This document shows, one piece after another, positions 3,972-27,991 of a stretch of DNA of 64,000 nt (the first letter of the stretch is position 1; the number at the start of each line of letters is the position of its first letter). Below the pieces are notes generated by a model. It worked only from the letters and a program-made list of their open reading frames with translations, made no database searches and had not been told where the DNA came from. The stretch comes from Niastella populi (GTDB taxonomy: Bacteria; Bacteroidota; Bacteroidia; Chitinophagales; Chitinophagaceae), in contig NZ_LWBP01000200.1 of assembly GCF_002078015.1 (NCBI RefSeq), forward strand, positions 1 to 64,000. The letters are read 5' to 3'. The position numbers and the translations under genes were made by a program.

Positions 3972-4211
3972 TCATTTCCCGAAGGGAATTCGCTTTTCCC
4001 TCAGGGAAATTGCTTTTCCTTACAGGAAACCGTAAAATCTTTCGGGAAACCGTAAAAGGCTTCGGGAAATCGCAAAATCCTTAGGGAAAAGGTATAAGCT
4101 TTTGGGAAAGCTGAAAAGCCTGCGGGAAATCAGAAAACCCGTAGGGATTCCTTAAAAATGTCAGGGAAAACGTAAAAGCCTCCGGGAAACGACTTTTCCT
4201 TGAGTAGTTTG
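3972..4211. repeat. 20-bp tandem array, about 12 degenerate units
   Basis: Units start at 3972 and repeat every 20 bp to about 4211, with rough consensus GTAAAAGCCTTCGGGAAACC. The GGGAAA core and the AAAA tract are the most constant parts. The first three units carry TTTTCC at the position of the AAAA tract. A-tracts recur about every 10 bp, which would favour intrinsic curvature. The period is not a multiple of three, so this is not a protein repeat. Confidence 0.9.
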
Positions 4212-4245
4212 CGCATCAAATCCTGACTTTGACCTGACATATGTC

Positions 4246-4707: not shown

Positions 4708-4917
4708 AATGTTTATTACAAGCCCACAACGGCGCAGGGTGGCCCGGCGATGGGCCAGGTGGAAGTATCAAAAGCAATTTTGAGAGCCTGAGAATCGCGT
4801 AAACGAAAGTTTTCTCCATCAGGTACCCCAATAAAAAGAGGGCGTACCTGACTATGATACACCCTCCTTTCTACAAAAGCTGATTTCTCCGTTAAGCGCA
4901 ACCCACCTTTTGGGATA

Positions 4918-5721: not shown

Positions 5722-5727
5722 GACCTG

Positions 5728-7341: not shown

Positions 7342-7350
7342 ATATATGCT

Positions 7351-8235
7351 TTATCTGTTTATTTTTAATTCACTCACCACCGGTAAATGATCGGAGGCAA
7401 ATGTTTCCATGATCGTTTTGTGATTGACCACACTGTATCTGGCCGCCGGTTTATAAGCCAGGTAGTCAATAACGGCTGTTGCATTGCTGGCCGGAAAGGT
7501 ATTGGGGCACGTTGTACATGTTCTGGTAAACGCACCATCCAATATGTTGATGAACTCAGTAGCGGAAGGCCGTTCGTTCAGATCGCCGCCCATCACCATC
7601 GGAATGGTAAATGAAGAGGCGACATTCACCAGCTCCTTTATCTGCAACAGCCTCGTTGCATCGTTGTCATGTTGCAGGTGCGTTGCCAGTGCCAGCAGGG
7701 AATCTTTGCCGGGGAGGTCAACCTGCGCCAGGCCCAATACACGCTGCTCTTCGGCAGCATTGCCTTTTGGCAAAAGCTGTTTCCTGATCTGGCTCATCGG
7801 ATACTTACTCAGGATTGCGACCCCATAGAAACCCTTCATATAGTTGATGGCAGAAAAATAAGCCACATTCATTTTTGTAAGCGTGCCCAACTCTGCCGAC
7901 TGGTCTTTCGTATACCCGTTCCTGCCGGTATTCTTATCTACCTCCTGTAAAAAAACGATATCAGGGTCTTCATCGGTGATCACTTTGGCAATAGCTGCTA
8001 TGTTCACTGTTCCGGGCGATCCGGGTGGCACCGCGGCGTGAATATTATACGTCATTATTTTAATACTGTTCAAAGCCGGATCATTATCATTATCCTTACC
8101 GTAAGTATTCACATTATTTATCAACTCTACATAGGCAGGCGGCGTATCGGGCATATACGGATCTTTATTGCAGCCCCAATGTATCAATAACACTGCTGCC
8201 GCTATCAGGGATGTTAAACGTTTACTCATTTCCAT
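7351..8235 (-). CDS. Endonuclease/exonuclease/phosphatase-fold lipoprotein (first copy)
   Basis: A 294-residue EEP-superfamily (DNase I-like) enzyme with a lipoprotein signal ending IHWGC (Cys22). Translation may begin at Met1 or Met3. Active-site motifs are all present: TYNIHAAV, FLQEVDK, a catalytic His in THLQHD, GGDLNERP, VIDYLAY and ASDHLPVV near the end. It follows susD by 11 bp and precedes the large lipoprotein by 9 bp. A surface-anchored phosphodiesterase next to a TonB-dependent importer suggests that an extracellular phosphodiester (DNA, phospholipid or phosphorylated glycan) is cut outside the cell and the product imported. The paralog at 4918-5721 shares fold and motifs but is clearly diverged. 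Confidence 0.9.
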   Translation of the reverse strand: MEMSKRLTSLIAAAVLLIHWGCNKDPYMPDTPPAYVELINNVNTYGKDNDNDPALNSIKIMTYNIHAAVPPGSPGTVNIAAIAKVITDEDPDIVFLQEVDKNTGRNGYTKDQSAELGTLTKMNVAYFSAINYMKGFYGVAILSKYPMSQIRKQLLPKGNAAEEQRVLGLAQVDLPGKDSLLALATHLQHDNDATRLLQIKELVNVASSFTIPMVMGGDLNERPSATEFINILDGAFTRTCTTCPNTFPASNATAVIDYLAYKPAARYSVVNHKTIMETFASDHLPVVSELKINR

Positions 8236-8246
8236 TGTAAGTTTAA

Positions 8247-10001: not shown

Positions 10002-10030
10002 CTTTACTTTTTTTGGTAAAACAAACAGGA

Positions 10031-13000: not shown

Positions 13001-13294
13001 ATTCTTTACATCATACTGCCGATACCCGATAAAAGAAAACCGGAAATGGTATGCGGTACCTGTTTTCAGTTGGTTGAAGCTGAAAATACCGTTGATGTTT
13101 GTATTTGTTGTAATTCGGGAGAATGTATCGGATGCGTTTACTGCTATAACCGTTACATTGGCCATCACCGTACCTTTTTCATCCAGTACGGTACCGGTTA
13201 TAGCGCCTGTTTGGGCTTTTATTCCGGATGACAGTAGAAGCATCAGTAATAAACATGCCCCTGCCCGCCGGAGACAAGTTAGTCCAACTTTCAT
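10031..13294 (-). CDS. SusC/RagA-family TonB-dependent outer-membrane transporter
   Basis: A 1087-residue SusC homologue. It has a signal peptide (about residues 1-28, ending GIKAQ), a carboxypeptidase-regulatory-like beta-sandwich (about 29-115), a TonB-box-like VVYVGYGTQK (about 124-134), a plug domain and a large beta-barrel ending in an aromatic-rich strand (FSKTYSFGLDITL). The plug has the RagA-type LQGVVPNLNIR and the segment DASVAAIYGARGAFGVILVT. There is no N-terminal STN signalling domain between the signal peptide and the beta-sandwich, although the operon encodes its own sigma factor and anti-sigma factor. It lies 45 bp after the FecR gene, so it is probably co-transcribed with the regulators. 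Confidence 0.95.
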   Translation of the reverse strand: MKVGLTCLRRAGACLLLMLLLSSGIKAQTGAITGTVLDEKGTVMANVTVIAVNASDTFSRITTNTNINGIFSFNQLKTGTAYHFRFSFIGYRQYDVKNFLIKAGESNSIMVKMALAPVNSMDEVVYVGYGTQKRMNLSGAVQQIVGDDLRDRPASNITTLLQGVVPNLNIRVASGTPGQMGTFNIRGNASTGGPEEPLVIIDGVPGTLDRLNPEEVESISVLKDASVAAIYGARGAFGVILVTTKSGKSGKTVIRYNNYLGYSTPTVSTDFLTTAYDWMRLNDAALAHVGGYSGYTERDYQELYDRRNDKTEDPSRPWVTIQNRNGKDQYVYYGNYDWWDIMFTKWQPSQNHNISISGGSETFSYMINGNIKSKNGIMRMNTDKYSAKTLRTKISAKLNPWLRISNNTNLYHNNYTYQGREGGGTANFTHINVHASPAYAPVNPDGTASYRTGLNNYDIGDGIFAMLIDGNTKGVDKKYELTTINEVVVTPLKNWNITGNYSFNLYTDPRFYRQTPATYSLYPGVVEVAPKYSVDMLKETQQFNQRHVVNLYSDYTTSFSKNHHLKVLVGYNQELHTDKSLRAERNNLTAEDLNDLNLGTGEQRVFGGSSEVALIGAFYRLSYDYKGKYIIETNGRYDGSSRFPAKDRWGFFPSMSAAWRISQERFFNALLPVVSDLKIRGSIGSLGNQQVDSRYPYISSMNPGTASYILDGQKVNYYSPANPVSASLTWEMATTYNGGIDIAFFKNKLNISFDKFVRITDNILAAGVKIPNVYGATQPSENVASIETKGFELAMNYRDQFRLLSKTFKYGITVALSDNYSTVKKINNPTALTNSLYEGKRMGEIWGYVTDGFFLTDAEAKTYPVNQRFLNRTRLDNNIPLRAGDLRWIDLDGNGIINSGANTIYDPGDQRVVGNNTPRYSYSFGGNASWNNIDLSFLFQGLGKMDWYPGNNADRFWGPYSRPYFSFIPKDFEKDVYSVDNPNAYFPNLLAYVALNANNELRATNNRYIQNLAYIRLKNLTIGYTLPRQLTQRAGIKGLRFFASGENIFTSTKLRSKYIDPEQAMAQIDGRVYPFSKTYSFGLDITL

Positions 13295-13339
13295 TGTTGA
13301 TTGTTTAGTAAAATATATTGTTTATGATTCTATAAGTAC

Positions 13340-14773
13340 TTACTGCCTGGCCAACTTCACGGTATACTCGCCGCGTTTCTTTTTAATTAGCTTTAAACCG
13401 TTCATGCGACATATAACGGGAAGCATTTCGATAGATGAATTATCGTTGGGGATGGTACCGGTAAAATACAGGTCCCGTATTTCTTCTTTCTGATATTTAA
13501 TTATTACGTTGTTCCTTTCTGCCACCTGGTCAAACACCAGCCACAGCGGCACTTTGCGGTAATCTTTGCCGGCCGGCACATCGGCGATGCGCATTCCGTT
13601 AGCATCTGACTGAACGGTGTGCAGGTTACTATCGGCCACCGCTGGGGGTATTACTGCCGGTTTCTCAGGCAATGGAAGCAACCCGGGGGTGGTTTCATTA
13701 ACGGTTTGCTCATGCATTTTTACCGGGGCTGTATTGGTATTTGCGGCTTTGTTAAACAGCAGGAATTTATCGCCCTGTTGTTCAACCTGCAATCCATTCA
13801 TAACGGCGATGATCTGTAAGATCTGTGATAAAGAATCACTTTTATCGAAGTGCCCGGTAAACAACTCATGACCGGTTTCATTTCCGTTAAAAACAATTTC
13901 TTTCCCAAATATTTTTTCAAGCCGGTCGAATGTTGCCGTTAGCGGCACTTTTTTAAAGTCAAGCACCAGTTCGCCGGCACTATTGTCTTTAACCGTTCCT
14001 GCTATATAATTACGGTTATCATTGCCGGCCATCACCTCCCCGATCTTTGTAACTTTTACCTGCGCCAGCGCCAGATCTATATTACATTGTTCGCCCGGGA
14101 AAAGATAGGTATCGCCAATGGCCAATTGCGCATTCACCGATCTTACAACCACTTTTCCCTCGTATAATTGAACATTGATATTCGTCGCTGTTTTACCCGC
14201 ATCTACCATGAAAACAGTACCTAACGCTGTAGTGGTAATGCCGCCGCTGTATACTGTAAAGGGGGCGTTTGGGTTTTTGGCTACATTAAAAACAGCTTTA
14301 CCCGTTAAATAAATGTCTCTTTTATCTTTCGCGGTTGAATAGATCACAGCAGACCCCGGATGTAAACTCAATCGCGAACCGTCGGCCAGTAAGACCTCCT
14401 GTACATTATTGTCGCCATTGACAATCCTGTCGAATGCCGGTGCAGCGAATATATTACCTGCAACAACAGCCTTCTCCTTTTTTACCGGCATTAACATATA
14501 TGCGCCTGTAATAAAGATCATGACGGCTGCAGCCGCCGCCAGTGGTTTCCATAGGGCAGCCAGCTTACCCCTGGTAGTGGCTGCGGAAACATGCCCCCGG
14601 ATGCTTTCTTCAATGTGCTGTGGTATTTCCGTTGCAGGCATATCCCATTCAGCTTTTGGCGCCAATTCGTCAAGAATGCCCGGGTCCCCGTTAATGAACT
14701 GCATAGCCTGCTCCGCTTCTTCTGCAGTGCATTCATTTCTCAAAAACTTTATAACGAGGTCTCTTTTTTCCAA
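13340..14773 (-). CDS. FecR-family anti-sigma factor with two C-terminal DUF4974/STN-like domains
   Basis: A 477-residue inner-membrane anti-sigma factor. The cytoplasmic N-terminus (1-75) should hold the ECF sigma factor, one membrane helix follows (about 78-95), then a periplasmic FecR domain (about 118-215). A DUF4974 domain follows (about 270-340; DFKKVPLTATFDRLEKIFG). Then, after a Pro-rich linker, comes a second similar domain (about 403-475; YRKVPLWLVFDQVAERNN). Family members usually have about 320-400 residues and one such domain. The duplicated beta-alpha-beta domain resembles the STN module normally found on the cognate SusC, which lacks it here. It follows the sigma gene by 48 bp. 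Confidence 0.9.
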   Translation of the reverse strand: MEKRDLVIKFLRNECTAEEAEQAMQFINGDPGILDELAPKAEWDMPATEIPQHIEESIRGHVSAATTRGKLAALWKPLAAAAAVMIFITGAYMLMPVKKEKAVVAGNIFAAPAFDRIVNGDNNVQEVLLADGSRLSLHPGSAVIYSTAKDKRDIYLTGKAVFNVAKNPNAPFTVYSGGITTTALGTVFMVDAGKTATNINVQLYEGKVVVRSVNAQLAIGDTYLFPGEQCNIDLALAQVKVTKIGEVMAGNDNRNYIAGTVKDNSAGELVLDFKKVPLTATFDRLEKIFGKEIVFNGNETGHELFTGHFDKSDSLSQILQIIAVMNGLQVEQQGDKFLLFNKAANTNTAPVKMHEQTVNETTPGLLPLPEKPAVIPPAVADSNLHTVQSDANGMRIADVPAGKDYRKVPLWLVFDQVAERNNVIIKYQKEEIRDLYFTGTIPNDNSSIEMLPVICRMNGLKLIKKKRGEYTVKLARQ

Positions 14774-14820
14774 ACGGAGATTTATTATAACAGGAAGTAC
14801 GGGCGAAATCTGATTTTCCC

Positions 14821-15369
14821 CTACGCTGTAAAAAATAAAATGTAAATAATTATAAAATGGGAGTTGCTCAGTGTTTTTCTCAGGTGGCTTAACGCCTTCA
14901 GCAACTGGCTGTCAACCGTTTTTGTGGAAATGCCCAGCAGGCGGGATATTTCTTTATAAGAATAACCGTGAACATGCTTCAATTCGAAGATCTGCTTTCG
15001 TTTTGCGGGCAAACTGTTCAATGCCGAATGAATAGCATCGCGAAGTTCATGACGGTCATTAAATGCAGCGGAAGAAATTTCGGCGGGAATATTTTCCGGC
15101 GTTTCAACATGCCGGCGATAACTGGCTTCTTTTCTGAGCCAGTCAATATAGATCTGGCGGGCTTTCTGAAAGATCTGTTGATCGAGGCCGATGGTTGCAT
15201 CCATTTGCTGCCGGTACTTCCATAATTTTATAAAAGTATCCTGCGTAAGCTCTTTTGCAACTTCTTCCTGTTTTGTTTTACGCATGAAGTAGGAATACAC
15301 CTTGTGCTTCCATTCGTCGAAGACGTCTGTGAAAGTTTTATGATCTCCCTCCTTCAGACTACTAATCAT
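14821..15369 (-). CDS. ECF RNA polymerase sigma-70 factor
   Basis: A 182-residue ECF sigma factor of the Bacteroidota SusCD-linked type. Region 2 shows KELTQDTFIKLWKYR, and region 4 shows LPAKRKQIFELKHVHGYSYKEISRLLGIS, followed by KTVDSQLLKALSHLRK. It is the first gene of the seven-gene operon and is expected to be held by the FecR protein encoded next, then released when the importer senses substrate. The hydrophobic end (HFIIIYILFFTA) is unusual for a cytoplasmic sigma factor; it may be a short membrane-contacting tail. A TAGGTTTG box (15394-15401) lies 25 bp upstream of the start. Confidence 0.92.
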   Translation of the reverse strand: MISSLKEGDHKTFTDVFDEWKHKVYSYFMRKTKQEEVAKELTQDTFIKLWKYRQQMDATIGLDQQIFQKARQIYIDWLRKEASYRRHVETPENIPAEISSAAFNDRHELRDAIHSALNSLPAKRKQIFELKHVHGYSYKEISRLLGISTKTVDSQLLKALSHLRKTLSNSHFIIIYILFFTA

Positions 15370-15393
15370 AACAGGGGCCTTTTAAATGAGATG

Positions 15394-15401
15394 CAAACCT
15401 A
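15394..15401 (-). promoter_or_regulatory. Bacteroidota -7 box before the sigma/FecR/SusCD operon
   Basis: On the minus strand the sequence reads TAGGTTTG, a match to TAnnTTTG, 25 bp before the ECF sigma start. No clear TTTG box sits about 20 bp upstream. Confidence 0.45.
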
Positions 15402-15495
15402 TTACAGATATATCGTTTGAAAGATTATTTTTACTTTAAGAAATTATAAATAATTGACATCTGTACACTTCATTGAAAATCACTAGAAATGCCCT

Positions 15496-15533
15496 TCACT
15501 GCGCAGCCACCAGCTCATTATACTGCTTCACCA
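15496..15533 (-). repeat. Left copy of the 38-bp direct repeat (gene-3'-end relic)
   Basis: It matches 27353-27390 at 36 of 38 positions in the same orientation. Read on the minus strand it encodes VKQYNELVAAQ and a stop, the counterpart of VKKYNELEAAQ-stop that ends the gene at 27353-27991. No other part of that gene is present here. The two copies bracket the whole RHS island. Confidence 0.85.
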
Positions 15534-15556
15534 AACAGGAAGCAGGAAACATTGAA

Positions 15557-16255
15557 TTAACCCGACTTGCGAGAAGACAATTTACCCAATGCCTCAACAT
15601 ATTTTTTCCAGTATGCCTCATTTCGCCAGATCCATCGCTCTTTTTTGACCCAACCGTGGGGCGGAGGTATTGTATCTAATGGATGAAATTTCCCGTTGGT
15701 AAATTTCGATACCATTTCTTTATTTGATCTAATGTCCTGATCAGTCATCTTCTGCAGGTCTGCCATGTAAACTATTTTAATCTCATCATATTTGATCACC
15801 TTAAGCCAAAATTCCCCGCCAAACCAGGGAGCAAGATAACTACGTGAAACGTTATTTATATACTGTGCTTTGATGGTGTCTCCGTCGATCTTATAAGCTC
15901 CCCAATATGAACCGATGTAAAATTCATCTCCAATACCATTTCTGGCAACGGCCATTAAACAACTATCAACATCAGGTGGAAAAGGCTGACGAAAGAAGAA
16001 GCTGTATACAAACGAACCATCTTCATAAAAAAGCATCTGCACAAAAAAGCTATCCAATTTCCCGGTTCTATTATTCTTCAAAAATTCTCCCCGCTCCCAA
16101 AATTGGTAATAACCATCAATATTCAAGAGGCTTCTGATGTTTGTGCTTTTCCCTTCGAGCTTATTGGTAAACCGTTCTCTTATATCTTTAGATACTGGTT
16201 TGTATGAGCATGCAAATAAAAGGTTCAATACTATTATAACTACTGCAATTTTCAT
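15557..16255 (-). CDS. Candidate immunity lipoprotein for the RHS toxin
   Basis: A 232-residue lipoprotein: the signal is short and ends LLFAC, Cys16. I recognise no family. The mature part is beta-rich with many aromatic residues (YYQFWERGEF, FVYSFFFRQPFP, APWFGGEFWLKVI). It begins 20 bp after the stop of the RHS-toxin gene on the same strand, the usual position of an immunity gene in polymorphic toxin loci, and it is more AT-rich than the RHS genes. A periplasmic or surface lipoprotein would intercept an incoming toxin outside the cytoplasm. This role is inferred from position only. Alternatively it could be an unrelated accessory lipoprotein. Confidence 0.6.
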   Translation of the reverse strand: MKIAVVIIVLNLLFACSYKPVSKDIRERFTNKLEGKSTNIRSLLNIDGYYQFWERGEFLKNNRTGKLDSFFVQMLFYEDGSFVYSFFFRQPFPPDVDSCLMAVARNGIGDEFYIGSYWGAYKIDGDTIKAQYINNVSRSYLAPWFGGEFWLKVIKYDEIKIVYMADLQKMTDQDIRSNKEMVSKFTNGKFHPLDTIPPPHGWVKKERWIWRNEAYWKKYVEALGKLSSRKSG

Positions 16256-16275
16256 TACTTCAAATAAGTTGGGTA

Positions 16276-19200
16276 TTAGAATAAAGAATACGGATTGTAA
16301 TATCCTGAATAGCCGTATAGCCCCTGGTTAAACTGACTATAATCTAAGTAATAATTTTGATTGCCAAACGTAAATACTCTTGATTGATGAATGCCATTCT
16401 GTTGCACGTCCTGAAATATCCAGTGGCTGTAACCAAATCTCGAAACATTTGAACCATTTCTGTAACCAATCCACAAAGGACTCGAGTAAACCATACCTTT
16501 TTCCCAGGCAGAAAATCCTGGTCGTTGATTATAACCATAGGTTGGGCTTGGGTTGTTTGCAACAGGGCTTCCTTCTTTTCGTTCATTTGTGTAAACAGAA
16601 GATCCAACTACAAAATTTCCCACTCCAAGCTCCCAGGCATTTGTTCGCCACCTGTCGCCATTACCGGCAAAGAAATCATTTTCCAATCTAAATGAAACAT
16701 CCCTGAACGATAATTTTACCCCACCTACGATTTGGGAATTTGAAGCTCCATCCGGACCAATGGCATTGCCATAATGGGTACGATAATAGGAGCCGCCATA
16801 ACCGTTGTATGTTACTCCGCCTCCCGCCGATACAGAGTTATTTGTAGTTCCGATCCCTGCAGAAATATTCCATTTCCCATCATCATAGGCAGCTCCAAAA
16901 TTTCCGCCGGCAGTAATTCCTCCTCCGCTAAAACCCAACCCAATTGAAGCGCTGAATGTAAAATCACCTATGGGTATGTTAATGGAAGGCATTATTGAAT
17001 TTAACGCGCTGGCTGCCGCCGTTTTGGCTGCAAAAGATAATCCGACCGTGTTTGCCTGCGCCTGAAAGCCTCCACTGGAGAAAGCATTCGCAATGCTTCC
17101 CTGGCTTATTCCGGCCGAACCTCCGGCTGTATAGTATCCCAACAAAAAGGTACCGGCACTCAACAGGCCAGATTGTACAGAACGCCAGCCCCAATTTCCG
17201 GTGGTCAAACCAGAGGATACATAACCTACTGCAAAGCCAATGGCGCCAACGATCACATCATCCCATCCTGCCCATTTTCCATCCGGGTCTATAGTACCGG
17301 GCCAGTTATTAGCCATCGCATTATAAGGGCTCGCAAACTGCCCGGCCGGGTCCTGTGCGTGCCACCTTCCTAATTGCGGATCATAATACCTGGCTTCAAA
17401 ATCATACTCCTCCAGCCCGCTGCCGTCATAAAACTCCCCCTGCTGCATTTCCTTTCCCTGGTATCCAAAATTCATTTGCATACTACCGTAAGCACGGCTG
17501 GTAAGGGCATACATGGCAAGCCCCTGCGGGTAGTAATGCATCTCATTCAGCAAAGCCCCTTTTGTGTGTACTACCTGCAGGTTGTCAAAATATACATCCC
17601 AATTACTTTCATTGCTGCAATACAAATACAAGTACCCGCTTTTTACAACATTAATGTTAAACGAGTGAAGCTTAAATGCATCGGCTGTGGCATTGATAGG
17701 GTCAAACCCGCTGCCGGCCTGTACCGGTTTAAATTGTTCATCAAATAGTATCCAGCAGATATTGGCACGCGGGGAAGTGGCAGGAACCGAAGAACTGTTT
17801 AATATGGGTGAGAGGTTGCCAGTGGTGGGCACATTAGCATTTAGCAGTGTACCGGTTGCGGCTCCTTTACTACCGCTTACTACCGCATTGGTCCCGGCAA
17901 AGGCATTGATAAAGGTGGAAAGTACATTACTTACCAGGTAACCGGTGTTATTAACTGAACCACCCGGGTTATGCCACAGCGAACGGCCATATACCTGGAA
18001 GGCATCTCCTGCCATCACTTTCAATGCTATACCCATGCCAAAACGATCACCGGTAGCGCCGTTCAGCTTATACATCTTCGTACTGGCCTGGGTAGGATTG
18101 ACCGTTGGGTCAGGCGGCGTCGGAAGCCCATTATTACTGTTATTGTTATAGCTATTGCCACTAACGGAGCTATACCAGCCTAATTGGCTCATCGTTACTA
18201 CATGATTGGCATCATTGGTAATATTGTAAAAGGTTTGTTCTGTTGCCATTCCGCCGGCCTCAAGCGTAGCGGCAGGGTAGTAAACTGTTTGCGATTCGTC
18301 TGTAAGGGTCATACGGATATTCCCCAGATGATCCCGTATATAATAGTCAAACACCCAGGTGTAATTGCTACCCGAAGACTTCAGCCGGGCGCGGCCTTCT
18401 GCATGCGCCATAAATAACAGGGATTCCGGTTGGTTTAACGATGACAGCGAAGCGTTTGAATAATTTTTCGACTGGTAAATAAATCCACCTATGTAAGTGG
18501 TAACGGTAGTAATATTTGAAGTATAGGTATTGATACCCAACTTAACGGAGGCTCCATTCTCCTGTACCGTCTTTTTCAGTTTATTTCCTGCTGCATCGTA
18601 CTGGTAAGTGATGCTCCCTTTGGAAAAAGTGATAACATTGGGCAGGTTTGAAGCATTATAGGTAATCAGGCTTATATTTTTGTTATCATCCCTGGTAAGG
18701 TTGCCATTATAGTCATAACCATAATCTACCGTTGCAGCTGTTTTGGATGTTGTTGCATAGTGAAAGTCGCCCAGTTTAGAACCGGCAACATTGGCATTGT
18801 CAATCACATGCTGAAGCCTGTTGCTGTTTTCTATGTTCAGATAGGCGTAGCTCAGGTTATCTATATTTGGAGCCCCGCCCAATACAAATCCATTTTGATT
18901 AAGTGTTTTAATATTGCCATTCAAATCATAGCTCATGCTGTTAAGAGAAAAATCCATGTAAGATTTATCCCAGGTAGTACTGCTGGTATTTTGCAAATAA
19001 GCTGCATTGGTCAACTGGTTTGCTTTATCGTAACTATAATCGAATTTTCTTGATACACCATCCCCTTTGCTTCTCCATATTTGCCCGCTAAGGCTGCCAT
19101 TGTAAGCCGGGTTTAAAAAGCTGGTAGTTCCGGTTGTGGCTGATGTTTTATCATATCCCAGTTCCATTCCAAACCAGTTGCCTGAATTACCAGCTATAGT

Positions 19201-20988
19201 ATAGTTCTTATTAATACCTGTCAGCCATCCCCGCACATTATAGTCATAGGTTTGGGTTTCAAGCGAAGTGCCAAGGGTTTTCGTTTTAGCCTGGCCAGTT
19301 TCCATATAGGTATAGGCAGCTATTGTTTTATCATTACTATTCGCGGTAGCGCCACCAATAGTACTGCTGATATTTTTCACCACAGAGAGCAACCGGCCTG
19401 CATGATCATAATTCCTTTTTGTCAATACGTTATGTGACTGCGCTCCCGTCCCCGGTTTACTATGTTGTTCATAAACTCTTAGTGGCGCACCCGTCCAACT
19501 GTATTGTGTGGTAGCCTTATCTATACCGTTGCTTAGGTTCGTTCCCTGTGTTTGTATAACACGGCCATGGTCGTCGTAAAAACTAACGGTATACAGGTAT
19601 TGGGTGCCATTGCTTTCCAACACTTCAGTTTTACTGCCTGTAACCATTCCCCTAATCATGGGCGATTGCACAATGGGCTGGGGATATGGTGCCGTGTTGT
19701 TGCTGGCAGCATAAAAGATTGCGGTATTCGATGTATTGGAAGCATCCAATGAGGAACCAAGTCCTGAACCTGTGCCCGCTACCCAATCATAGTTATCATA
19801 CCATGTTTGCGAAAGCAGTTCTGTTGTGTAGGATGCCACATTTGGGTAGGTGGTAGACCCTTTGGCAATACCCTGATGATAAATCCTGTTGTTATAATTG
19901 GTGTGATCAGTCATTAAACCCGTTGCAATCGGCCGGTCCTGCGTATCATACTGAAAATATTGCCATTTATGTATATTTCTCAGGTTACCATCCTGTGTCA
20001 TTACAATGCGGCCTCTCTGATCATATACCGTCCACACTTCTCCGGCGCTACCAGTGGGTGTTCCGGCATTTTTCCGGATAATAACCCGGTTATAATCATC
20101 ATATTCGAATCGGAAACATAATTCATCAGCCCTGCCCTGGTCTATTGTCCATGTGCCATCTGTTAGTGCAACCATTTTTGGGGGGATAATGAAACGTAGA
20201 TTACTATAATCATCATACACATAGTAAGTGCATTGCCAGCCTGCATGCGGGCTGCCGCTACCGTTATCTGCTGTAGTTGTTGTATACTGCACTTTTTTTA
20301 GGATAACCAGGCCATCTTTATCGGTATATTGAATGCTTTGATTCCCGTTTACATCCGTACCGATAGTTTTATATAACCGGCCGGCTGCATAGGCGCCGGA
20401 ACTGGCAGGAAGGCTCCCGGGCGCCGCCGCAATATTCCAGATGCGCACATTATCCGTTGCCGTATTGGTAACATGGCGAACGGTAGTGCCTCTGTTGCTG
20501 CCCACCCAACTGCTGCCCCGGCCATAGCTCTTCAATACCCTGTTCGCCGGGGAATTGTCTACATCTATCTGCGAATAGAAATTCGATTCGCCCGGGAACA
20601 TGGCCTGGTTAAAAGCGGTTTGCAGCGCCAGGGCGTTGTTCTTAAAGGCCCCGTCACTGCCATTGATGAACGGCATGTATTTCTTTGTTTCCCTTCCCCA
20701 GTTGTCATATACGTGCATTGCCACCGCATCCTGCTGCAAAGGGCTGATTTGTTTGCTTACCGTTTGCACCGTTCTGCCAAAACCGTCGATGTACTCGGTA
20801 CTTTGTATCACATGCGATACAGGTAAGGAAGTGGACACAATATCTATTTCGTTGGCAAACGGCTTTTGGGCCACCCACGACTTCAGCGTATTGTATGTTT
20901 GACCATAGCTGGTGAAAGCGTTCAGCAACAGCATTATGGTGGAAAGAATGCGTAATGATCGCAGGTAAGGTTTATTATTGATAGTCAT
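16276..20988 (-). CDS. RHS-repeat protein with C-terminal toxin-23-like domain
   Basis: About 1570 residues. I take ATG at 20988 as start; an upstream TTG at 20994 is possible. The order is: signal-like hydrophobic N-terminus (SLRILSTIMLLLNAFTSYGQ), a DUF6443-type start, many YD/RHS repeats, then the RHS core end signature (YDFEARYYDPQLGRWHAQDP; about residue 1210). A variable tail of about 330 residues follows IDPDGK. The tail opens with a Gly/Ala-rich hydrophobic region and then a beta-rich domain (FRLENDFFAGNGDRWRT, FVVGSSVYTNERK) that resembles polymorphic toxin type 23. RHS repeats form a shell enclosing the tail, which is released by cleavage at the core. The start lies 2 bp after the preceding stop. 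Confidence 0.85.
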   Translation of the reverse strand: MTINNKPYLRSLRILSTIMLLLNAFTSYGQTYNTLKSWVAQKPFANEIDIVSTSLPVSHVIQSTEYIDGFGRTVQTVSKQISPLQQDAVAMHVYDNWGRETKKYMPFINGSDGAFKNNALALQTAFNQAMFPGESNFYSQIDVDNSPANRVLKSYGRGSSWVGSNRGTTVRHVTNTATDNVRIWNIAAAPGSLPASSGAYAAGRLYKTIGTDVNGNQSIQYTDKDGLVILKKVQYTTTTADNGSGSPHAGWQCTYYVYDDYSNLRFIIPPKMVALTDGTWTIDQGRADELCFRFEYDDYNRVIIRKNAGTPTGSAGEVWTVYDQRGRIVMTQDGNLRNIHKWQYFQYDTQDRPIATGLMTDHTNYNNRIYHQGIAKGSTTYPNVASYTTELLSQTWYDNYDWVAGTGSGLGSSLDASNTSNTAIFYAASNNTAPYPQPIVQSPMIRGMVTGSKTEVLESNGTQYLYTVSFYDDHGRVIQTQGTNLSNGIDKATTQYSWTGAPLRVYEQHSKPGTGAQSHNVLTKRNYDHAGRLLSVVKNISSTIGGATANSNDKTIAAYTYMETGQAKTKTLGTSLETQTYDYNVRGWLTGINKNYTIAGNSGNWFGMELGYDKTSATTGTTSFLNPAYNGSLSGQIWRSKGDGVSRKFDYSYDKANQLTNAAYLQNTSSTTWDKSYMDFSLNSMSYDLNGNIKTLNQNGFVLGGAPNIDNLSYAYLNIENSNRLQHVIDNANVAGSKLGDFHYATTSKTAATVDYGYDYNGNLTRDDNKNISLITYNASNLPNVITFSKGSITYQYDAAGNKLKKTVQENGASVKLGINTYTSNITTVTTYIGGFIYQSKNYSNASLSSLNQPESLLFMAHAEGRARLKSSGSNYTWVFDYYIRDHLGNIRMTLTDESQTVYYPAATLEAGGMATEQTFYNITNDANHVVTMSQLGWYSSVSGNSYNNNSNNGLPTPPDPTVNPTQASTKMYKLNGATGDRFGMGIALKVMAGDAFQVYGRSLWHNPGGSVNNTGYLVSNVLSTFINAFAGTNAVVSGSKGAATGTLLNANVPTTGNLSPILNSSSVPATSPRANICWILFDEQFKPVQAGSGFDPINATADAFKLHSFNINVVKSGYLYLYCSNESNWDVYFDNLQVVHTKGALLNEMHYYPQGLAMYALTSRAYGSMQMNFGYQGKEMQQGEFYDGSGLEEYDFEARYYDPQLGRWHAQDPAGQFASPYNAMANNWPGTIDPDGKWAGWDDVIVGAIGFAVGYVSSGLTTGNWGWRSVQSGLLSAGTFLLGYYTAGGSAGISQGSIANAFSSGGFQAQANTVGLSFAAKTAAASALNSIMPSINIPIGDFTFSASIGLGFSGGGITAGGNFGAAYDDGKWNISAGIGTTNNSVSAGGGVTYNGYGGSYYRTHYGNAIGPDGASNSQIVGGVKLSFRDVSFRLENDFFAGNGDRWRTNAWELGVGNFVVGSSVYTNERKEGSPVANNPSPTYGYNQRPGFSAWEKGMVYSSPLWIGYRNGSNVSRFGYSHWIFQDVQQNGIHQSRVFTFGNQNYYLDYSQFNQGLYGYSGYYNPYSLF

Positions 20989-20990
20989 GT

Positions 20991-21527
20991 TCAATTGACT
21001 TTAAAAGTGATGCGGATAGGTAATACAACCGGATCGGTTGAAGGAAGCTGCCCTTCAGACAACTTAATAAAGCACCAGCCATCCTTTTGTACCCTGATGT
21101 CGTACACGTCGGTTAACAGCCAGTACCTTGCTTCCACGGCATTGGGCGGCCATAACTTCTTATCCCTGATCCTGCCGAAAGGCCGATACTGGCTCCAGTC
21201 GGCATCGCGGCTATGGGAAACGGCGGCCTCCAGCACCACACTATCGCGTCCCCGGGTACTCACATACGAAGCAAACAATGACCAGGCGCCCTGCCGGTTC
21301 GGTACAAACCCCGAAGTATCGGCCAGTTCGCTGGCACGCCTGTGCGCCATGCGCAGTGAAAGTGTTGAATCGGGAGCCAGCGACGCGGGCAGATTCCCTA
21401 TGGCCCTGGCAGCTACGGTCGGCGATGTAACCGGCGCTGGGCGCACACGCAAATAAAAGGTATCCTGCGCCCATGACCGATGCAGGCCAAAGGCAAATAA
21501 TACGGTAAATATGATAAGGTATCTCAT
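20991..21527 (-). CDS. Small secreted protein between the two RHS genes
   Basis: About 178 residues if started at ATG 21527, which has a good signal peptide (RYLIIFTVLFAFGLHRSWAQ); a longer start at 21557 would overlap the upstream gene. I recognise no family. The mature part has an Arg-rich helical section followed by a beta-rich half (KLWPPNAVEARYWLLTDVYD, DGWCFIKLSEGQLP). It lies 10 bp after the DUF5977/RHS gene and 2 bp before the RHS-toxin gene, so it is tightly coupled to both. A chaperone, adaptor or surface-assembly factor for the RHS proteins would fit, but this is inference from position. Confidence 0.7.
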   Translation of the reverse strand: MRYLIIFTVLFAFGLHRSWAQDTFYLRVRPAPVTSPTVAARAIGNLPASLAPDSTLSLRMAHRRASELADTSGFVPNRQGAWSLFASYVSTRGRDSVVLEAAVSHSRDADWSQYRPFGRIRDKKLWPPNAVEARYWLLTDVYDIRVQKDGWCFIKLSEGQLPSTDPVVLPIRITFKVN

Positions 21528-21537
21528 GTTATTTTCT

Positions 21538-24500
21538 TTAAAGAGTAAACGTAACACCGCTTAAAGGCACGGTATTGTTCGGCGGAACGTCAGTGCCGCT
21601 GGTGATCTGGGCATATATCTGCCCGGTAGTATATATAGTAATTTGCCAGGTTCGGCCGGCCGCCGAAACGGTTACATACCTGGTTGTGGAAGGCCGGCAA
21701 AGCCCGCTGATGGTTCCAATGAAATAACTGGAGCCAAAATACATCGTGCCCGAAGTGGGATAGAATATCATATAGAAAGTAACCGTTCCTCCCGATGCAG
21801 ACGCACCGCTGGCAATGGTGCTGTAACCGGTATTCGTCGTTATCGTGCACGATATGGCCGAACAGCTGCCATTGGCGTTTGCATACGCCTGCCCGTTGGT
21901 GTTCACATCGTTAATGGCTTTCTGGTTGGCATCGGCCTGGCTGATCGTCGACATGTAGGTGCCCGCAGCTACGGTATAGGTGACCGTACTGCCGGTGCTG
22001 CCGGTGCCACAATTATTGCGGGTAAAGCTGCCCGATTGGGCCACATTGTACCAAACCTGGTAGCACGTGGCGTTATTGTTGGCATACGTTTGCCCGTTAG
22101 TGACCACATCGTTATACGCCTGCGCATCGGCATCGGCCTGGCTGATGGCCGACGTATATATACCGGCGGGCACTACGTAGGTAGCCTGGTTGCCCAGGTA
22201 GCCGGCGGCACAGTTATTTCGCGTAAAGGTTTGTGAACGCGATGCATTCGCATATACCGTTGGTACGGGGCAGGCTACCGGCTGCCCGGCAAAATTGTAA
22301 CAGTTTTTAGATACGATGTTCCTGTCGTTATCCCGTACAACGTTCAATCTGCCCAAACCGTCGAATTCATAGGTGGTGGTTCTGCCGCTGGGATCTATCT
22401 CGCCGGTTTTACCCACCTGAGGATCGTATGTGTAGGTGGTCATCAGGGCGTCGGCCGGGAACACCCTGATATCGTCCACTACGCCGCTGAGCGTAGTTGG
22501 ATAAGTATAGGGCGCCTCATTGAACACCCATTTGCCGCTTACCCATTTCCACCATTGTATAATATAGTTTTTGCTGTTGGGGGGTGAGAACGGAACCGCA
22601 TACGAACCCGAACTGCTGTACCTGTTGCCCGTATGCGCGCTACCGGCCGTTCCGGCATTTTCTTCGAACCCCTGATAAAAATACTCCCTGGTCATGGTGG
22701 GATAATTCTTTGGGTACGTTCCCGTAATGTAAAAACTGAAACCCGGCGCACTGCTTGCCGTAAGCGTTAAAGTATAGGTTCCGGCCGGAAGTGAGATATT
22801 TGCCGAAACGTTGGAGGAGCAGCCTGAACCTGAGGGTCCCATACAATGGCTCCCACTCAAATTGGAGGAGCCCGTGATCGTGTAGCTCCACGTAATATTG
22901 CCTGTCAAATTACCCATGGGATAAATATTCCAGATGAGCGAACCTGCATAGTCGGTAGTTATGTTTACCGTGTACGTAGAAGTTACGGAGCTGCCGAAAC
23001 CGCTCGATCCCTGGTTCACCTGCAAAAAAACGTCGGCATTGGCAACCGCGGCAACCGGATAGGTATTGTTATACCCATATAACACGCTGGTGCTTTTACC
23101 GCCGGTTTCTTTGCTGGCCACCATGTTAACGTTGGTGGTTTCGTACTTCAGCGTTTTAGTGGTGAGCAGGGTGCTGCCTTTATAACTGGCCGCGCTGGTG
23201 AGGTAAGGCGCCGTACTTCCCTGGTAAGCATAAGTATAGGTATAATGGGTTTGCCTGATGGCGCCGTTCCTGTTCGCGGTTTCATGTACTACGGCATCGA
23301 GGTTGTTCATCGATTTCAGGGTGTTCACTACCGTTTGTTCGGCAGTTGTGATCATGGGAATACCCGTATCATGTGCATGATGAACAGTTTTGGTTACGGT
23401 ATTCCCTTTAGCGTCTGTAGAAGATATGCTTTGTATGGTTCGCTTATTGGCGCAATAGGTAAAACTGGTAGCCGTTTCAATATAATTGGCCGGCGTCAGC
23501 TGATCGTATTCGCGGCGCACCACGCCCGACAACCGGTAATTCTCTATATTGGTGTAATAAACGGAACTGAGGTCTCTGAGGCTCCAGTTTCCACCGCACG
23601 ATGCGTTGGCAATGTACGAGCGATAGGCCCAGCCCGATTTTGCGACCGGGCTGGTAAGGCTTGTATAGGAATTGATCTCCTCTGTAATTTTTTCGTTTGC
23701 GGCAGTGTATGCAATGACTGATTTAAGCAAACCCCGTTTGTGTGCGAAACTTACAGAGGATGTAAGCGTTGGCACGTTGGTTTCGCTGCAAAGCATACCG
23801 GTGCTGAACACATCGCCAAAATCGCTGAAGTTCTGAAAATTACAAACGGTATATCCACCATTCTGCTGTACGGTTTTCACCGATGAATAACCGATGAATG
23901 CGCCATTGAGGTCGTAGATATTTACTGCCGACTCGGAAAGAACCTTTTGCGCGAGGAGCTGGCAGCTGCCATTGATGGAATTCACTACCAGGTACTGGTA
24001 GGCTTCCGTTTGTATCTGCCCGGTAGATTTTCCGGTGGCATCATTGTAAACGTATTGTGTTTGAATTATATCGCCGGCTGCGAGGCTCTTTGCAATACTG
24101 CTTACCCTGAGCCCGCATACAATGGTATTTGAACCGGGATTTGCCTGGTAGTATGTGTTACCCTCATAGTTGATGGTCCAGGTAGCGCCGCCCAATTCCG
24201 CAATTTTAGTAAGAATGTCGGCTTTTGAATTATGCGCATTCGCCGACCTGATGGTAGGGTCGGTCATGGGATCGGTGGTTGCGTATGGGATAAAAGATTT
24301 ATAATAACCCCAGTAGTCGAAGTTCTGGGAATTGCGTGCCGGTAAATGCTGATCGGCGTTATAAGTAAAGGAACGATAGGTAACCGGCGTGGAGGTGGCA
24401 ACGGTACCGCCCGCCATTGTGATATTATCCAGCTTCAGCCGAAGCAGGTTCACATTGGTGGTAGGGTCGCCGAAATAACTATAGTTAAAGCCAAATGTTT

Positions 24501-25548
24501 TCAACACAATAGTGCCCACAGAACCGGTAGCCTTCAGGCTTACCGATGTGAGCCTGGCCGCGGTGGTAATATCGCGCCGGTCATAAGCATAAGTGAATGA
24601 AATTTGACCGGTTGCACAGCTGATGGATGACAGGTACTTAGGCTGAACGACCGTCATGGGAATAGGATCGCTGGTATTGGTAACACACCCGTTGTAGTAA
24701 TAAGTTCGCGTCCATTGATAATGGTTCAATACATCATTATTGGAAGAAGAGGTATAACTGAAGTTTACATTGTCCTTTCCATTAAAGCTGGTAATATTGC
24801 TCAGGTACCAGGCAGTGGTAAAAGTGTACGATGTGCCGTAGAGCGTGGTAATGGTCTTTTCCCTCGAATTACCGAAAGTGTATACATTGCCCGCAGGGTC
24901 GGTTACGGTAAAGATCGAATTATCGTAACTCCCTGTTGCAAAAAAGCCGGAAGTAGTGATCCTGACGCCTGTTTCATTGTTAAAAACAGGGTTACCGTTC
25001 TCATCGAACGTAAACTGAAGGTTAAAGGTGGGCGTTCTTAAATAATAGATATCCGGTTCCCCGTCGGCGGTAACACCCACGTAAGACGTACCGTCCCACC
25101 CTGTAATGGCCTTGTAATCGGCCGCAGACAAGGGAACATTGTCAACCATGTTTTGTTTTATCTTCCGGCCATAGCGAAGGGTTCCCAGGTAACCGTTTGT
25201 AAATTCATCGGGGAAGCCCCGCACCACGCGTGAAATGCTTCCACCGGCCGATAGTTGCCAGCCAAGGCCCACACTGGTTGCATAGTCCTGTACTTTTATA
25301 CCCCGCCCGGCGGTGTACTGCAGGGAAACCGGGATATTCAACGCACGCGATGAAAGCTCGCAAAGCGGAATATTAACCTGGGCGGCGCCGGTATACAGGT
25401 CTACCCCCACACCGGATGAACCACCTATGGAATTCAAAAAGCTGTTATTGGGTGATGGAAATCCCAGATTGTTCAAATTGCCCTGGGCAAACAGTTCTGC
25501 AAGTGGCAGCAAAACGAAGCAGAGGAGTAAGGTTTTGGTTTTGTTCAT
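21538..25548 (-). CDS. Large secreted RHS/YD-type protein with DUF5977 repeats
   Basis: 1336 residues. It has a signal peptide (about 1-22, ending ELFAQ), then a start typical of Bacteroidota SpvB/RHS-like proteins (VDLYTGAAQVNIPL, VGLGWQLSAGGSISR), a long beta-rich body, and one clear YD repeat near the end (YEFDGLGRLNVVRDNDRN). Two DUF5977 repeats follow (FTRNNC with ISQADA, about residues 1090-1225), and a Thr/Gly-rich beta domain closes the protein. No type IX sorting signal is seen. It lies upstream of the small protein and the RHS-toxin, reminiscent in order, though not proven in homology, of B and C components of Tc toxins that build one shell from two proteins. Confidence 0.82.
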   Translation of the reverse strand: MNKTKTLLLCFVLLPLAELFAQGNLNNLGFPSPNNSFLNSIGGSSGVGVDLYTGAAQVNIPLCELSSRALNIPVSLQYTAGRGIKVQDYATSVGLGWQLSAGGSISRVVRGFPDEFTNGYLGTLRYGRKIKQNMVDNVPLSAADYKAITGWDGTSYVGVTADGEPDIYYLRTPTFNLQFTFDENGNPVFNNETGVRITTSGFFATGSYDNSIFTVTDPAGNVYTFGNSREKTITTLYGTSYTFTTAWYLSNITSFNGKDNVNFSYTSSSNNDVLNHYQWTRTYYYNGCVTNTSDPIPMTVVQPKYLSSISCATGQISFTYAYDRRDITTAARLTSVSLKATGSVGTIVLKTFGFNYSYFGDPTTNVNLLRLKLDNITMAGGTVATSTPVTYRSFTYNADQHLPARNSQNFDYWGYYKSFIPYATTDPMTDPTIRSANAHNSKADILTKIAELGGATWTINYEGNTYYQANPGSNTIVCGLRVSSIAKSLAAGDIIQTQYVYNDATGKSTGQIQTEAYQYLVVNSINGSCQLLAQKVLSESAVNIYDLNGAFIGYSSVKTVQQNGGYTVCNFQNFSDFGDVFSTGMLCSETNVPTLTSSVSFAHKRGLLKSVIAYTAANEKITEEINSYTSLTSPVAKSGWAYRSYIANASCGGNWSLRDLSSVYYTNIENYRLSGVVRREYDQLTPANYIETATSFTYCANKRTIQSISSTDAKGNTVTKTVHHAHDTGIPMITTAEQTVVNTLKSMNNLDAVVHETANRNGAIRQTHYTYTYAYQGSTAPYLTSAASYKGSTLLTTKTLKYETTNVNMVASKETGGKSTSVLYGYNNTYPVAAVANADVFLQVNQGSSGFGSSVTSTYTVNITTDYAGSLIWNIYPMGNLTGNITWSYTITGSSNLSGSHCMGPSGSGCSSNVSANISLPAGTYTLTLTASSAPGFSFYITGTYPKNYPTMTREYFYQGFEENAGTAGSAHTGNRYSSSGSYAVPFSPPNSKNYIIQWWKWVSGKWVFNEAPYTYPTTLSGVVDDIRVFPADALMTTYTYDPQVGKTGEIDPSGRTTTYEFDGLGRLNVVRDNDRNIVSKNCYNFAGQPVACPVPTVYANASRSQTFTRNNCAAGYLGNQATYVVPAGIYTSAISQADADAQAYNDVVTNGQTYANNNATCYQVWYNVAQSGSFTRNNCGTGSTGSTVTYTVAAGTYMSTISQADANQKAINDVNTNGQAYANANGSCSAISCTITTNTGYSTIASGASASGGTVTFYMIFYPTSGTMYFGSSYFIGTISGLCRPSTTRYVTVSAAGRTWQITIYTTGQIYAQITSGTDVPPNNTVPLSGVTFTL

Positions 25549-25579
25549 TATACTTCTATTGAATAAGGTTGTAAACAGG

Positions 25580-27040
25580 TTAACGCAGGGTATACCCCAT
25601 TCTGAAAACCAGTGGGCCTGGCCGGGGCGCCTGCCTGTAACTCAAAAAATCCCACAGTAACTGCAGCCTGGCGCCCTTCAATGGTTTTGAGCTGAACGAA
25701 ACGGTTTTACTTATTCCCAGCAACGCACTTTGCTGCCAGGCCGGCTGGTCCTTCAGGTCGGCAATTTTCCTGATCTCCGAAAGGTAATTTCGTTCATAGC
25801 CCCCCGTGATCCACCAGCTTCCCCTGGTCTTTTTAATGCCGAATAGCGTAACAGGGAATTTTATATCTACATAACTTCTTAAGCCAACCCCCTGGTGCGT
25901 AAGCTGAATTCGCCGGATGTTCTCGCCAAGCCCCAACTTATAGGAAACGCCGAGGCCGATAGTACCGGCGTTGGAAAGTCGGTATCCTATACCTGCCCCC
26001 AGTTCGGAAGATGCGGGAAAATAGCCGTTCGATTTGTGAGACTGCAGGCTGGTGGTAAGCTCGAGCCGTTGCAGAAAAGATTTCGTTCTTTGTGGGTTTG
26101 GTTTAAATCCCTCTGGCATAATATCATCGCTGCCCCGGTTGCCCGTTTCGCCTATCTTATTCTTCAGTTGTTGCAATTGCGCCTGGCCTGCCTGTAAATT
26201 AGCCTGCATCGCGCCTTGGGCATTCGGGCCGCCGGCCGCCAATTGATTTTGGATCAATTCATTCATAGCCGATCGCGTTTGCAGGCCCGTTAAATCAGCC
26301 GCTGCTGACCCGTTTCCCTGGCTGCCTGCTGCAAACAAACCTGCAAGCATGCCGTTTTTTTGTATAAACTCCTCAAATGGTTTCATGCGGCCCAGTATCG
26401 ACAATATCGTTCGCTCCGCTTTTCGCTGGTTACTGAAAGTTTCTTTTATGCCAATTAACTCTTCCGAGTAATAATACAGTTCCTTGTTGATCTTTGTAAG
26501 CTCTTTCGATAATTTGAACCGGTTCAACTGATCTTTTATGTAACTTTTGCTCTCCTGCAAATACTGTTTGATATCCTCTGCGTTCTTCAGTTTGGCAGTA
26601 AATGCCGTAACATTTGCAACGGCATTCCGCACTTCGCCGCCCTGCGCCCCTCCCAACTTAGATTGCTGTAAGAACTTAAGTGATGAAGTAATGGTGTCCA
26701 GCGCCGGAAAATATCTCGACATGGCACCTGGTGCGGCCAGTTTACGCTGAAGGTCTTTATATCTTTGTTCAGATACGATGTAAAAATTGCGGGCCGCTAC
26801 AGAATCGGTTTTATATAATTTACGTAAAATAGTTTTTTCATATTTCGCGTACTTACGTAGTGCCTTACTCGTTTTCCGGTCAACTTCATGATTGAGCGTT
26901 AGCGACTTGTGAGATATACTTTTACCGAATGTATTGGAGAGGCCTGCAAGCTCAGCAGGTGTGGGATCCTGTGCATAAACGCAGAATGGTTTAAATAGCA
27001 CAGGCAGGCAGAACAGGAAGATAAGGTTATAGGTTTTCAT
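25580..27040 (-). CDS. Outer-membrane barrel protein with coiled-coil domain, RHS-operon leader
   Basis: 486 residues. A signal peptide (about 1-24, ending CVYAQ) is followed by a long helical, Lys/Glu-rich region with coiled-coil character (about 45-230), a Gln/Ala-rich linker (LQAGQAQLQQLKNKIG) and a C-terminal beta-barrel-like part of about 170 residues (SSELGAGIGYRLSN, SWWITGGYERNY) ending in an outer-membrane-type strand (PLVFRMGYTLR). I know no named family. It is the first gene of the RHS operon, 31 bp before the DUF5977/RHS gene. A periplasm-spanning coiled coil joined to a barrel suggests an export or anchoring platform for the RHS proteins; this is inferred. Confidence 0.75.
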   Translation of the reverse strand: MKTYNLIFLFCLPVLFKPFCVYAQDPTPAELAGLSNTFGKSISHKSLTLNHEVDRKTSKALRKYAKYEKTILRKLYKTDSVAARNFYIVSEQRYKDLQRKLAAPGAMSRYFPALDTITSSLKFLQQSKLGGAQGGEVRNAVANVTAFTAKLKNAEDIKQYLQESKSYIKDQLNRFKLSKELTKINKELYYYSEELIGIKETFSNQRKAERTILSILGRMKPFEEFIQKNGMLAGLFAAGSQGNGSAAADLTGLQTRSAMNELIQNQLAAGGPNAQGAMQANLQAGQAQLQQLKNKIGETGNRGSDDIMPEGFKPNPQRTKSFLQRLELTTSLQSHKSNGYFPASSELGAGIGYRLSNAGTIGLGVSYKLGLGENIRRIQLTHQGVGLRSYVDIKFPVTLFGIKKTRGSWWITGGYERNYLSEIRKIADLKDQPAWQQSALLGISKTVSFSSKPLKGARLQLLWDFLSYRQAPRPGPLVFRMGYTLR

Positions 27041-27352
27041 TCAACTCCTTTTTGGTAGTTGTGATAAGAATGGCCCCTGTAAAAATGAGAATGAATGCAG
27101 TCAGTATGTATTGATGGCAGCGCGGTAAAAGGAAAACAGCAGATCTGGGTCACAAGCAGCAATCAACCCAAAACAGACGAAATTCTGTATTAAATTTATG
27201 GAAGAATTAAATACTTCCCGTTTTTTAATAAAATTTTTCCTGAAAAAATGCAATACAAAGGTAAAAACTACAAGTATTCGTTAGAGACATATATGAATTG
27301 GGTATTATACATGGCACCGCGGTAAGAACGCTGTATTTTATGCTAACCCGGC
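27041..27352. other. Leader region of the RHS operon
   Basis: 312 bp of AT-rich DNA without a gene. It holds one promoter-like box (27256-27263), so the leader would be about 200 nt; no hairpin with a T-run was seen in it. Confidence 0.45.
27256..27263 (-). promoter_or_regulatory. Possible -7 box for the RHS operon
   Basis: The minus strand reads TACCTTTG, matching TAnnTTTG, about 215 bp before the barrel-protein start. No -33 box is evident. Confidence 0.35.
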
Positions 27353-27390
27353 TCACTGCGCAGCCTCCAGCTCATTATACTTCTTCACCA
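27353..27390 (-). repeat. Right copy of the 38-bp direct repeat
   Basis: The 3' end and stop codon of the secreted-protein gene, repeated in the same orientation at 15496-15533 with two mismatches. Together the copies flank 11.8 kb. Confidence 0.85.
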
Positions 27391-27991
27391 CCGCTACAAA
27401 ATCTTCGGGGTGTTGCATTTTAAGCTGGTTGGCAGCAATAAACTGCGCGAGCGGTTCCTTCTTATCGGCAAAAATTTCAGGCAGCTCGGTACGGCTGGCG
27501 GGTAACAATACCATTTCGCCATTGCGCAGCAGGTAATAAAATTCTACTTCTTCCATGCGGCGGTTAATACGGCCGTTCACCGAAACGAGTTGTTTTTCTT
27601 CAATGATATTGCGCGCAATTAACCTTAGTAGTGAAATTTTATCCTGCAAAAGCACGTGAAAATAGGTTTGATCGGTGGTTTTGTTCGTTGAGGGAAATCC
27701 GCGGCGGAATAAAAGCGAGTCTTTCTTTTTGGGATACAATACAAATTCCTTCACCTTGCTTTCGGCTGCGAAGGCATTGCCCTCGAACTGCAGCAGTAAC
27801 ATATTCTTTAAACAATCGAACTTCAGTTTGAACTGGGTGAGGGTACGGCCGCTGGTAAAACGCACCACCCCATCGCACCAGTCTTTCATGAGATAAGGGT
27901 TGCCGGTGATCGAATTCATTTCATCTTCTCTCGGTGTTTGGCCCAACGCACACTGGCACAGCAACAGCAAACACCAGGCAATATGTTTCAT
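27353..27991 (-). CDS. Secreted protein of unknown function bordering the RHS island
   Basis: 212 residues with a Sec signal (about 1-17, ending CALGQ). I recognise no family. The mature part looks like a small beta-rich domain with a helical end (EDFVAVVKKYNELEAAQ). It is on the same strand as the RHS operon, 312 bp upstream of it. Its last 38 bases including the stop are duplicated at the far end of the RHS island (15496-15533), so this gene marks one border. It may be a resident housekeeping gene whose 3' end served as a recombination site, or an ancestral member of the island with a lost paralog. Confidence 0.65.
   Translation of the reverse strand: MKHIAWCLLLLCQCALGQTPREDEMNSITGNPYLMKDWCDGVVRFTSGRTLTQFKLKFDCLKNMLLLQFEGNAFAAESKVKEFVLYPKKKDSLLFRRGFPSTNKTTDQTYFHVLLQDKISLLRLIARNIIEEKQLVSVNGRINRRMEEVEFYYLLRNGEMVLLPASRTELPEIFADKKEPLAQFIAANQLKMQHPEDFVAVVKKYNELEAAQ

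What the first reader, a model, noticed from the sequence alone, without database searches (positions are those of the whole stretch)
15496..27390. RHS island bracketed by direct repeats copied from a neighbouring gene's 3' end
A 38-bp segment including a stop codon (VKxYNELxAAQ-stop) ends the gene at 27353-27991 and recurs, same strand, 36/38 identical, at 15496-15533. The two copies flank exactly the five-gene RHS block and nothing else of the border gene is present on the left. This looks like att-like duplication at a gene 3' end, or homologous exchange of toxin modules at conserved gene ends. No integrase is visible, so either the element is non-autonomous or the left copy is the last trace of a lost paralog.
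Basis: partly seen in the sequence, partly recalled or inferred. Interest (0 to 1): 0.82.

Follow-up and report, generated by a model that had tools for sequence, protein, structure and literature searches.

The report
Gene-end stub beside RHS cassette
A toxin gene block in a soil-type bacterium sits beside a short leftover copy of a neighbouring gene's end, which looks like a scar of imported DNA joined by ordinary recombination in a region that often gains genes, rather than like a special mobile element.

Summary
The repeat is real: 36 of 38 bases, same strand, 11,857 bp apart, the only two copies in the genome at up to 3 mismatches. The five-gene RHS cassette between the copies is missing at this place in 8 of 8 congeners whose contigs allow a judgement, and no congener carries a left-hand paralog. 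So it is a lineage-specific gain in a variable interval behind groEL and a conserved 212-aa gene.

The att reading is weakened. The right copy is followed by 38 nt resembling the terminator behind this gene in three congeners, so the cassette border lies past the repeat. Beyond the left copy lies a second inserted block (sigma/FecR/TonB/SusD), found about 327 kb away from the gene in another species. Each copy has one private amino-acid change. No PF00589 integrase lies on this contig.

Best explanation: one-sided homologous recombination anchored on the groEL/212-aa side brought in gene, terminator and cassette; the far end joined illegitimately inside the resident gene and left its last 38 bp as a stub. 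A similar mechanism has been proposed for T6SS and Rhs modules. No conspecific genome was available, so this is inference.

The parts
15496..15533 (-). Left copy of the repeat: last 38 bp of a 212-aa-gene allele, stop codon included (stub)
   Evidence: 36 of 38 to 27353-27390; one private change, Lys to Gln
27353..27390 (-). Right copy of the repeat: 3' end of the intact 212-aa gene
   Evidence: one private change at the codon after NEL, Glu where 9 of 9 congeners have Leu or Ile
27353..27991 (-). Border gene, 212 aa, no Pfam, NCBIfam or PHROGs match
   Evidence: one ortholog in each of 9 congeners at 74-83%
27315..27352 (-). Probable remnant of the ancestral terminator behind the 212-aa gene
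   Evidence: blastn alignments with L038, L042 and L043 run to 27315; 15 of 18 match at 27332-27315; hairpin itself not kept
25580..27040 (-). Cassette gene 1, 486 aa, no family match over cut-off
   Evidence: relatives at other sites in 8 of 9 congeners
21538..25548 (-). Cassette gene 2, 1336 aa, RHS/YD repeat and DUF5977
20991..21557 (-). Cassette gene 3, 188 aa, no family match
16276..20994 (-). Cassette gene 4, 1572 aa, DUF6443, RHS core, C-terminal Ntox23
15557..16255 (-). Cassette gene 5, 232 aa, candidate immunity gene by position only
   Evidence: no family match; no relative in 9 congeners at E 1e-5
15534..15556 (.). 23 bp between cassette gene 5 and the stub; inferred illegitimate join at or near 15533/15534
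   Evidence: identity between the copies ends here
15465..15495 (.). 31 bp between the stub and the start of homology with the G007 sigma block
4922..15464 (-). Second inserted block: ECF sigma, FecR, TonB receptor, SusD, 294-aa, 537-aa and 267-aa genes
   Evidence: 81.5% over 9,835 columns to L102, 77.3% over 727 to L108; families
2959..3558 (+). 3-keto-disaccharide hydrolase family gene, shared gene on the left side of the variable interval
   Evidence: behind the 212-aa gene in G002, G003, G006, G007

Best explanation
The left copy is a stub of the resident 212-aa gene. DNA from a closely related strain, carrying the groEL side, the 212-aa gene, its terminator and the RHS cassette, recombined with the chromosome: one end was anchored by homology in or upstream of the 212-aa gene, and the non-homologous far end behind the last cassette gene joined illegitimately into the resident gene 38 bp before the end of its stop codon. 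What remains is an intact incoming gene, the cassette, and then the resident gene's last 38 bp with its resident downstream neighbour, the sigma block. Shown: the repeat, its uniqueness, absence of cassette and of a second gene end in the congeners, terminator-like flank behind the right copy only, two blocks in a variable interval, one private change in each copy. Inferred: that the sigma block already lay directly behind the resident gene, who the donor was, and the one-sided mechanism.
For: Right copy followed by flank resembling the ancestral one to 27315, left copy not. Codon after NEL: 8 of 9 congeners Leu and 1 Ile, left copy Val, gene Glu; the Lys codon: 9 of 9 congeners and the gene Lys, left copy Gln, so the copies look like two alleles rather than a recent copy of the present gene. 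Interval from the gene to the next shared 168-aa gene is 1.2-3.7 kb in 7 congeners, about 38 kb in G003, and about 28 kb here if C199 and C213 abut. In G003 a FecR-like and a TonB-like frame begin 970 nt behind the gene. A mechanism of this kind is proposed for T6SS modules and noted as hypothesised for Rhs loci in PMC5361080 (passages).
Against: In the laboratory such events insert about 1 kb on average and are rare (PMC3240628, introduction); here about 11.8 kb. No genome with the gene followed directly by the sigma block was seen. Identity ending exactly at the stop codon is also what an att site would give. The terminator remnant is short (15 of 18), the same motif scores higher at window 1-26, and 6 of 9 congeners give no such alignment, so its orthology is likely, not certain. 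Base composition does not mark the cassette as foreign (46.8% G+C against 46.4% on the right).
Confidence: 0.42

Rival explanations
1. Site-specific integration: the 38 bp is an att site at the gene's 3' end, and the cassette (with a recombinase acting from elsewhere, or since lost) integrated there; the left copy is the displaced old gene end.
For: Direct repeats flank the cassette and one of them completes the gene; identity ends at the stop codon; 19 PF00589 matches elsewhere in the genome.
Against: No integrase-family match on C199 or C213; no recombinase domain in the 5 cassette proteins; no inverted repeat in either copy beyond shuffles (195 and 162 of 300 as good); no congener repeats its own gene end; terminator-like flank behind the wrong copy. 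Serine recombinases and transposases were not sought genome-wide.
Confidence: 0.2
2. A tandem duplicate of the 212-aa gene existed; the cassette entered between the two and the second copy was deleted but for its last 38 bp.
For: One private change in each copy fits an older duplication; some more distant genera hold 2-4 relatives of the gene.
Against: Each of 9 congeners has one copy; no degraded gene body beside the left copy.
Confidence: 0.16
3. Templated filler: the left join between cassette and sigma block was repaired with a 38-bp patch copied from the gene about 12 kb away.
For: The left copy sits between two unrelated blocks and has sharp ends.
Against: The patch would end at a stop codon by accident; at the codon after NEL the left copy is nearer to the congeners than the present gene is.
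Confidence: 0.12

Closest known systems
Homology-facilitated illegitimate recombination as proposed for effector-immunity module displacement in Vibrio cholerae T6SS clusters (PMC5361080, passages read)
   Same: A toxin module enters beside a conserved anchor and a leftover of the resident sequence is found behind the new module
   Different: There the leftovers are immunity genes and an effector 3' end, and the anchor belongs to the toxin locus; here the leftover is 38 bp of a neighbouring gene
Integrative elements that insert at the 3' ends of genes (recalled; abstract listing only)
   Same: Short direct repeats, one of which completes the gene
   Different: No integrase found near, no exact empty site seen, terminator-like flank on the other side, no repeat of the gene end in congeners
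RHS polymorphic toxin genes with Ntox23 (PMC3482391, one table passage read)
   Same: RHS plus Ntox23 in a member of the Bacteroidota
   Different: No difference established; the cassette itself was not studied further

Membership tests
Site-specific integrative element at a gene 3' end | Direct repeats at both ends, one completing the target gene | tested here: met
Site-specific integrative element at a gene 3' end | Recombinase gene in the element | tested here: not met
   none in 5 cassette proteins; 0 of 19 PF00589 matches on C199 or C213
Site-specific integrative element at a gene 3' end | Empty site: one repeat with the same outer flanks | tested here: inconclusive
   cassette absent in 8 of 8 judged congeners, but none has the sigma block next to the gene; no conspecific genome seen
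Site-specific integrative element at a gene 3' end | Excised circular form | not testable with these tools
   needs cells or reads
Product of homology-facilitated illegitimate recombination | Homologous anchor on one side, non-homologous join on the other | tested here: inconclusive
   gene and near flank intact on the right, abrupt end of identity on the left; donor and recipient sequences unknown
Product of homology-facilitated illegitimate recombination | Micro-homology of 3-10 bp at the join (PMC3240628) | not testable with these tools
   the donor sequence beyond the join is unknown
RHS polymorphic toxin gene | RHS core plus C-terminal toxin domain | tested here: met
   TIGR03696 and PF15528 over their cut-offs
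RHS polymorphic toxin gene | Cognate immunity protein next to the toxin | tested here: inconclusive
   232-aa gene in the right place but without a family match

The most novel reading that the evidence does not exclude
RHS cassettes in these Bacteroidota move as non-autonomous units that target the 3' end of a conserved chromosomal gene, using a recombinase encoded elsewhere in the genome.
Probability: 0.1. Interest if true: 0.65.

Novelty: new member of a known kind. Interest (0 to 1): 0.3.

Why it matters
It is a readable scar of how a toxin cassette can reach a chromosomal site without a mobility gene of its own. The interval behind the 212-aa gene gains large blocks in some lineages of this genus, so strain-level genomes could test how RHS modules spread in Bacteroidota. 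If the att reading held after all, it would point to a mobile toxin unit worth looking for.

Tried and rejected
Flank repeats as a general feature of such cassettes: 15 of the 20 other cassette regions fetched were scanned (L082, L084, L085, L087, L090 were not). The best 38-mer match between 5' flank and downstream DNA was 20-26 of 38 in 11, and 30, 30, 35, 38 in four (L093, L096, L097, L095); reversed controls gave 16-25, or no seed in one. For L096 the sequence shows a second gene start of the same kind; L095 holds a second copy of the 486-aa gene and L097 a second RHS region; L093 looks like a simple AGTTGACA-type repeat by eye. None looks like a repeated gene end.

The terminator hairpin as a common mobile repeat: unlikely. 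Its bulged form was found at four places in 3 of 10 genomes, three of them behind the 212-aa gene; the perfect palindrome only at the starts of C199 and C213.

The convergent gene behind the 212-aa gene in four congeners as source of 27041-27352: no convincing match; the output was cut. Rfam on window 1-32000: no match at gathering score. The repeat, with its two variable positions free, in viral contigs: 0. Papers holding both 'Niastella' and 'Rhs': 0 in this library. A promoter-motif regex (motif recalled) printed no site.

Full report
What was checked. The window is C199:1-64000 of an 8.61-Mb genome in 263 contigs. Relatives of its 212-aa protein at 74-83% lie in eight named Niastella and Longitalea records, with two more distant ones at 45-50%. 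The 38-bp repeat is as described, 36 of 38, far beyond chance. At up to 3 mismatches the window's own repeat was sought in 10 genomes (own, 6 congeners, 3 others of the order); only the own genome matched, twice.

The locus in relatives. The 212-aa gene has one ortholog in each of 9 congeners, beside groEL in all 9. The distance from its stop to the next shared gene (168 aa) is about 1.2, 2.4, 3.0, 2.9, 2.0, 3.5 and 3.7 kb in G008, G005, G004, G009, G002, G006 and G007, and about 38 kb in G003. In G001 the contig ends about 120 bp behind the gene, so it was not judged. The RHS cassette is not in this interval in any of the 8 judged: seven are too short, and in G003 relatives of the first cassette gene lie on other contigs. 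The sigma block is not there either. Here the interval is about 28 kb if C199 and C213 abut at the 24-bp palindrome with which both begin; gene order on C213 supports that.

Two neighbouring blocks. Window 4922-15464 (ECF sigma, FecR, TonB receptor, SusD and two Exo_endo_phos genes) is 81.5% identical over 9,835 aligned columns to G007 DNA in L102 and continues in L108. In G007 it lies about 327 kb from the 212-aa gene on the same contig. Its homology stops at 15464, 31 bp short of the left copy. The RHS cassette lies between the left copy and about 27314. At E up to 1e-10 its first gene has relatives at other sites in 8 of 9 congeners: two or three in six of them, one in two, at 37-42% identity with two partial hits at 29%, both in G007; the own genome has three more at 26-42%. 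Its last gene has none in the 9 at E 1e-5.

Where the ancestral flank lies. Behind the right copy, blastn alignments with G006, G007 and G001 run on to 27315; those of the other congeners end in or at the gene. The stretch includes AGCGTTCTTACCGCGGTG against AGCATTCCTCCCGCGGTG, 15 of 18, at nearly the same distance from the stop; in 64 kb, both strands, only the palindrome at window 1-26 scores higher. Local alignments of 150 nt for these three were reached by 2, 7 and 0 of 200 shuffles, for the other six by 4 to 169 of 200; behind the left copy the best of nine was reached by 13 of 200. The hairpin is strong in G007 (z -4.7) and lost here behind both copies. A simple integration at the gene end should leave the old flank behind the left copy; the reverse is seen.

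Relation of the copies. At one Lys codon 9 of 9 congeners and the gene have Lys and the left copy Gln. After NEL 8 congeners have Leu and 1 Ile, the left copy Val, the gene Glu. Each copy thus has one private change, as two alleles or an older duplication would.

Mechanism. I favour one-sided homologous recombination: anchor on the groEL/212-aa side, illegitimate join inside the resident gene, and a 38-bp stub left behind. PMC5361080 (passages) proposes this for T6SS modules and notes it as hypothesised for Rhs loci. PMC3240628 (abstract and introduction) describes the reaction; its rarity and its insert size of about 1 kb speak against it here. The att reading keeps weight because the repeat ends at the stop codon and integrases exist elsewhere in the genome (19 PF00589 matches, none on C199 or C213).

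Judgement. A real and neat scar in a variable interval, of a known kind of process. By family scans the cassette is an RHS locus with DUF5977, DUF6443 and Ntox23; three of its five proteins have no family match over a cut-off and were not studied further.

Noticed in passing
window 1-26: Perfect 24-bp palindrome at the contig start; contig C213 starts with the same one, so the two contigs probably abut there. It resembles the terminator behind the 212-aa gene in three congeners.
   Followed up: partly
window 3667-3862: Non-coding stretch; pieces of 75-164 nt are conserved at 74-87% in seven congeners, also in three where the neighbouring hydrolase gene was not found nearby; no Rfam match.
   Followed up: partly
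window 3975-4709: Tandem repeat arrays (20/60-bp and 21/147-bp units) between that stretch and the sigma block.
   Followed up: no
window 716-1710: Amino acid permease gene that looks broken: two overlapping frames here, one frame in G003, and about 350 bp less before the next gene.
   Followed up: no
window 13340-14773: FecR of the sigma block is 64% identical to its G007 counterpart while the TonB receptor beside it is 91%.
   Followed up: no
L085 (G000:C203): Partial relatives of the 486-aa and RHS proteins lie under 2 kb from a PF00589 match at C203:79752-80174.
   Followed up: no
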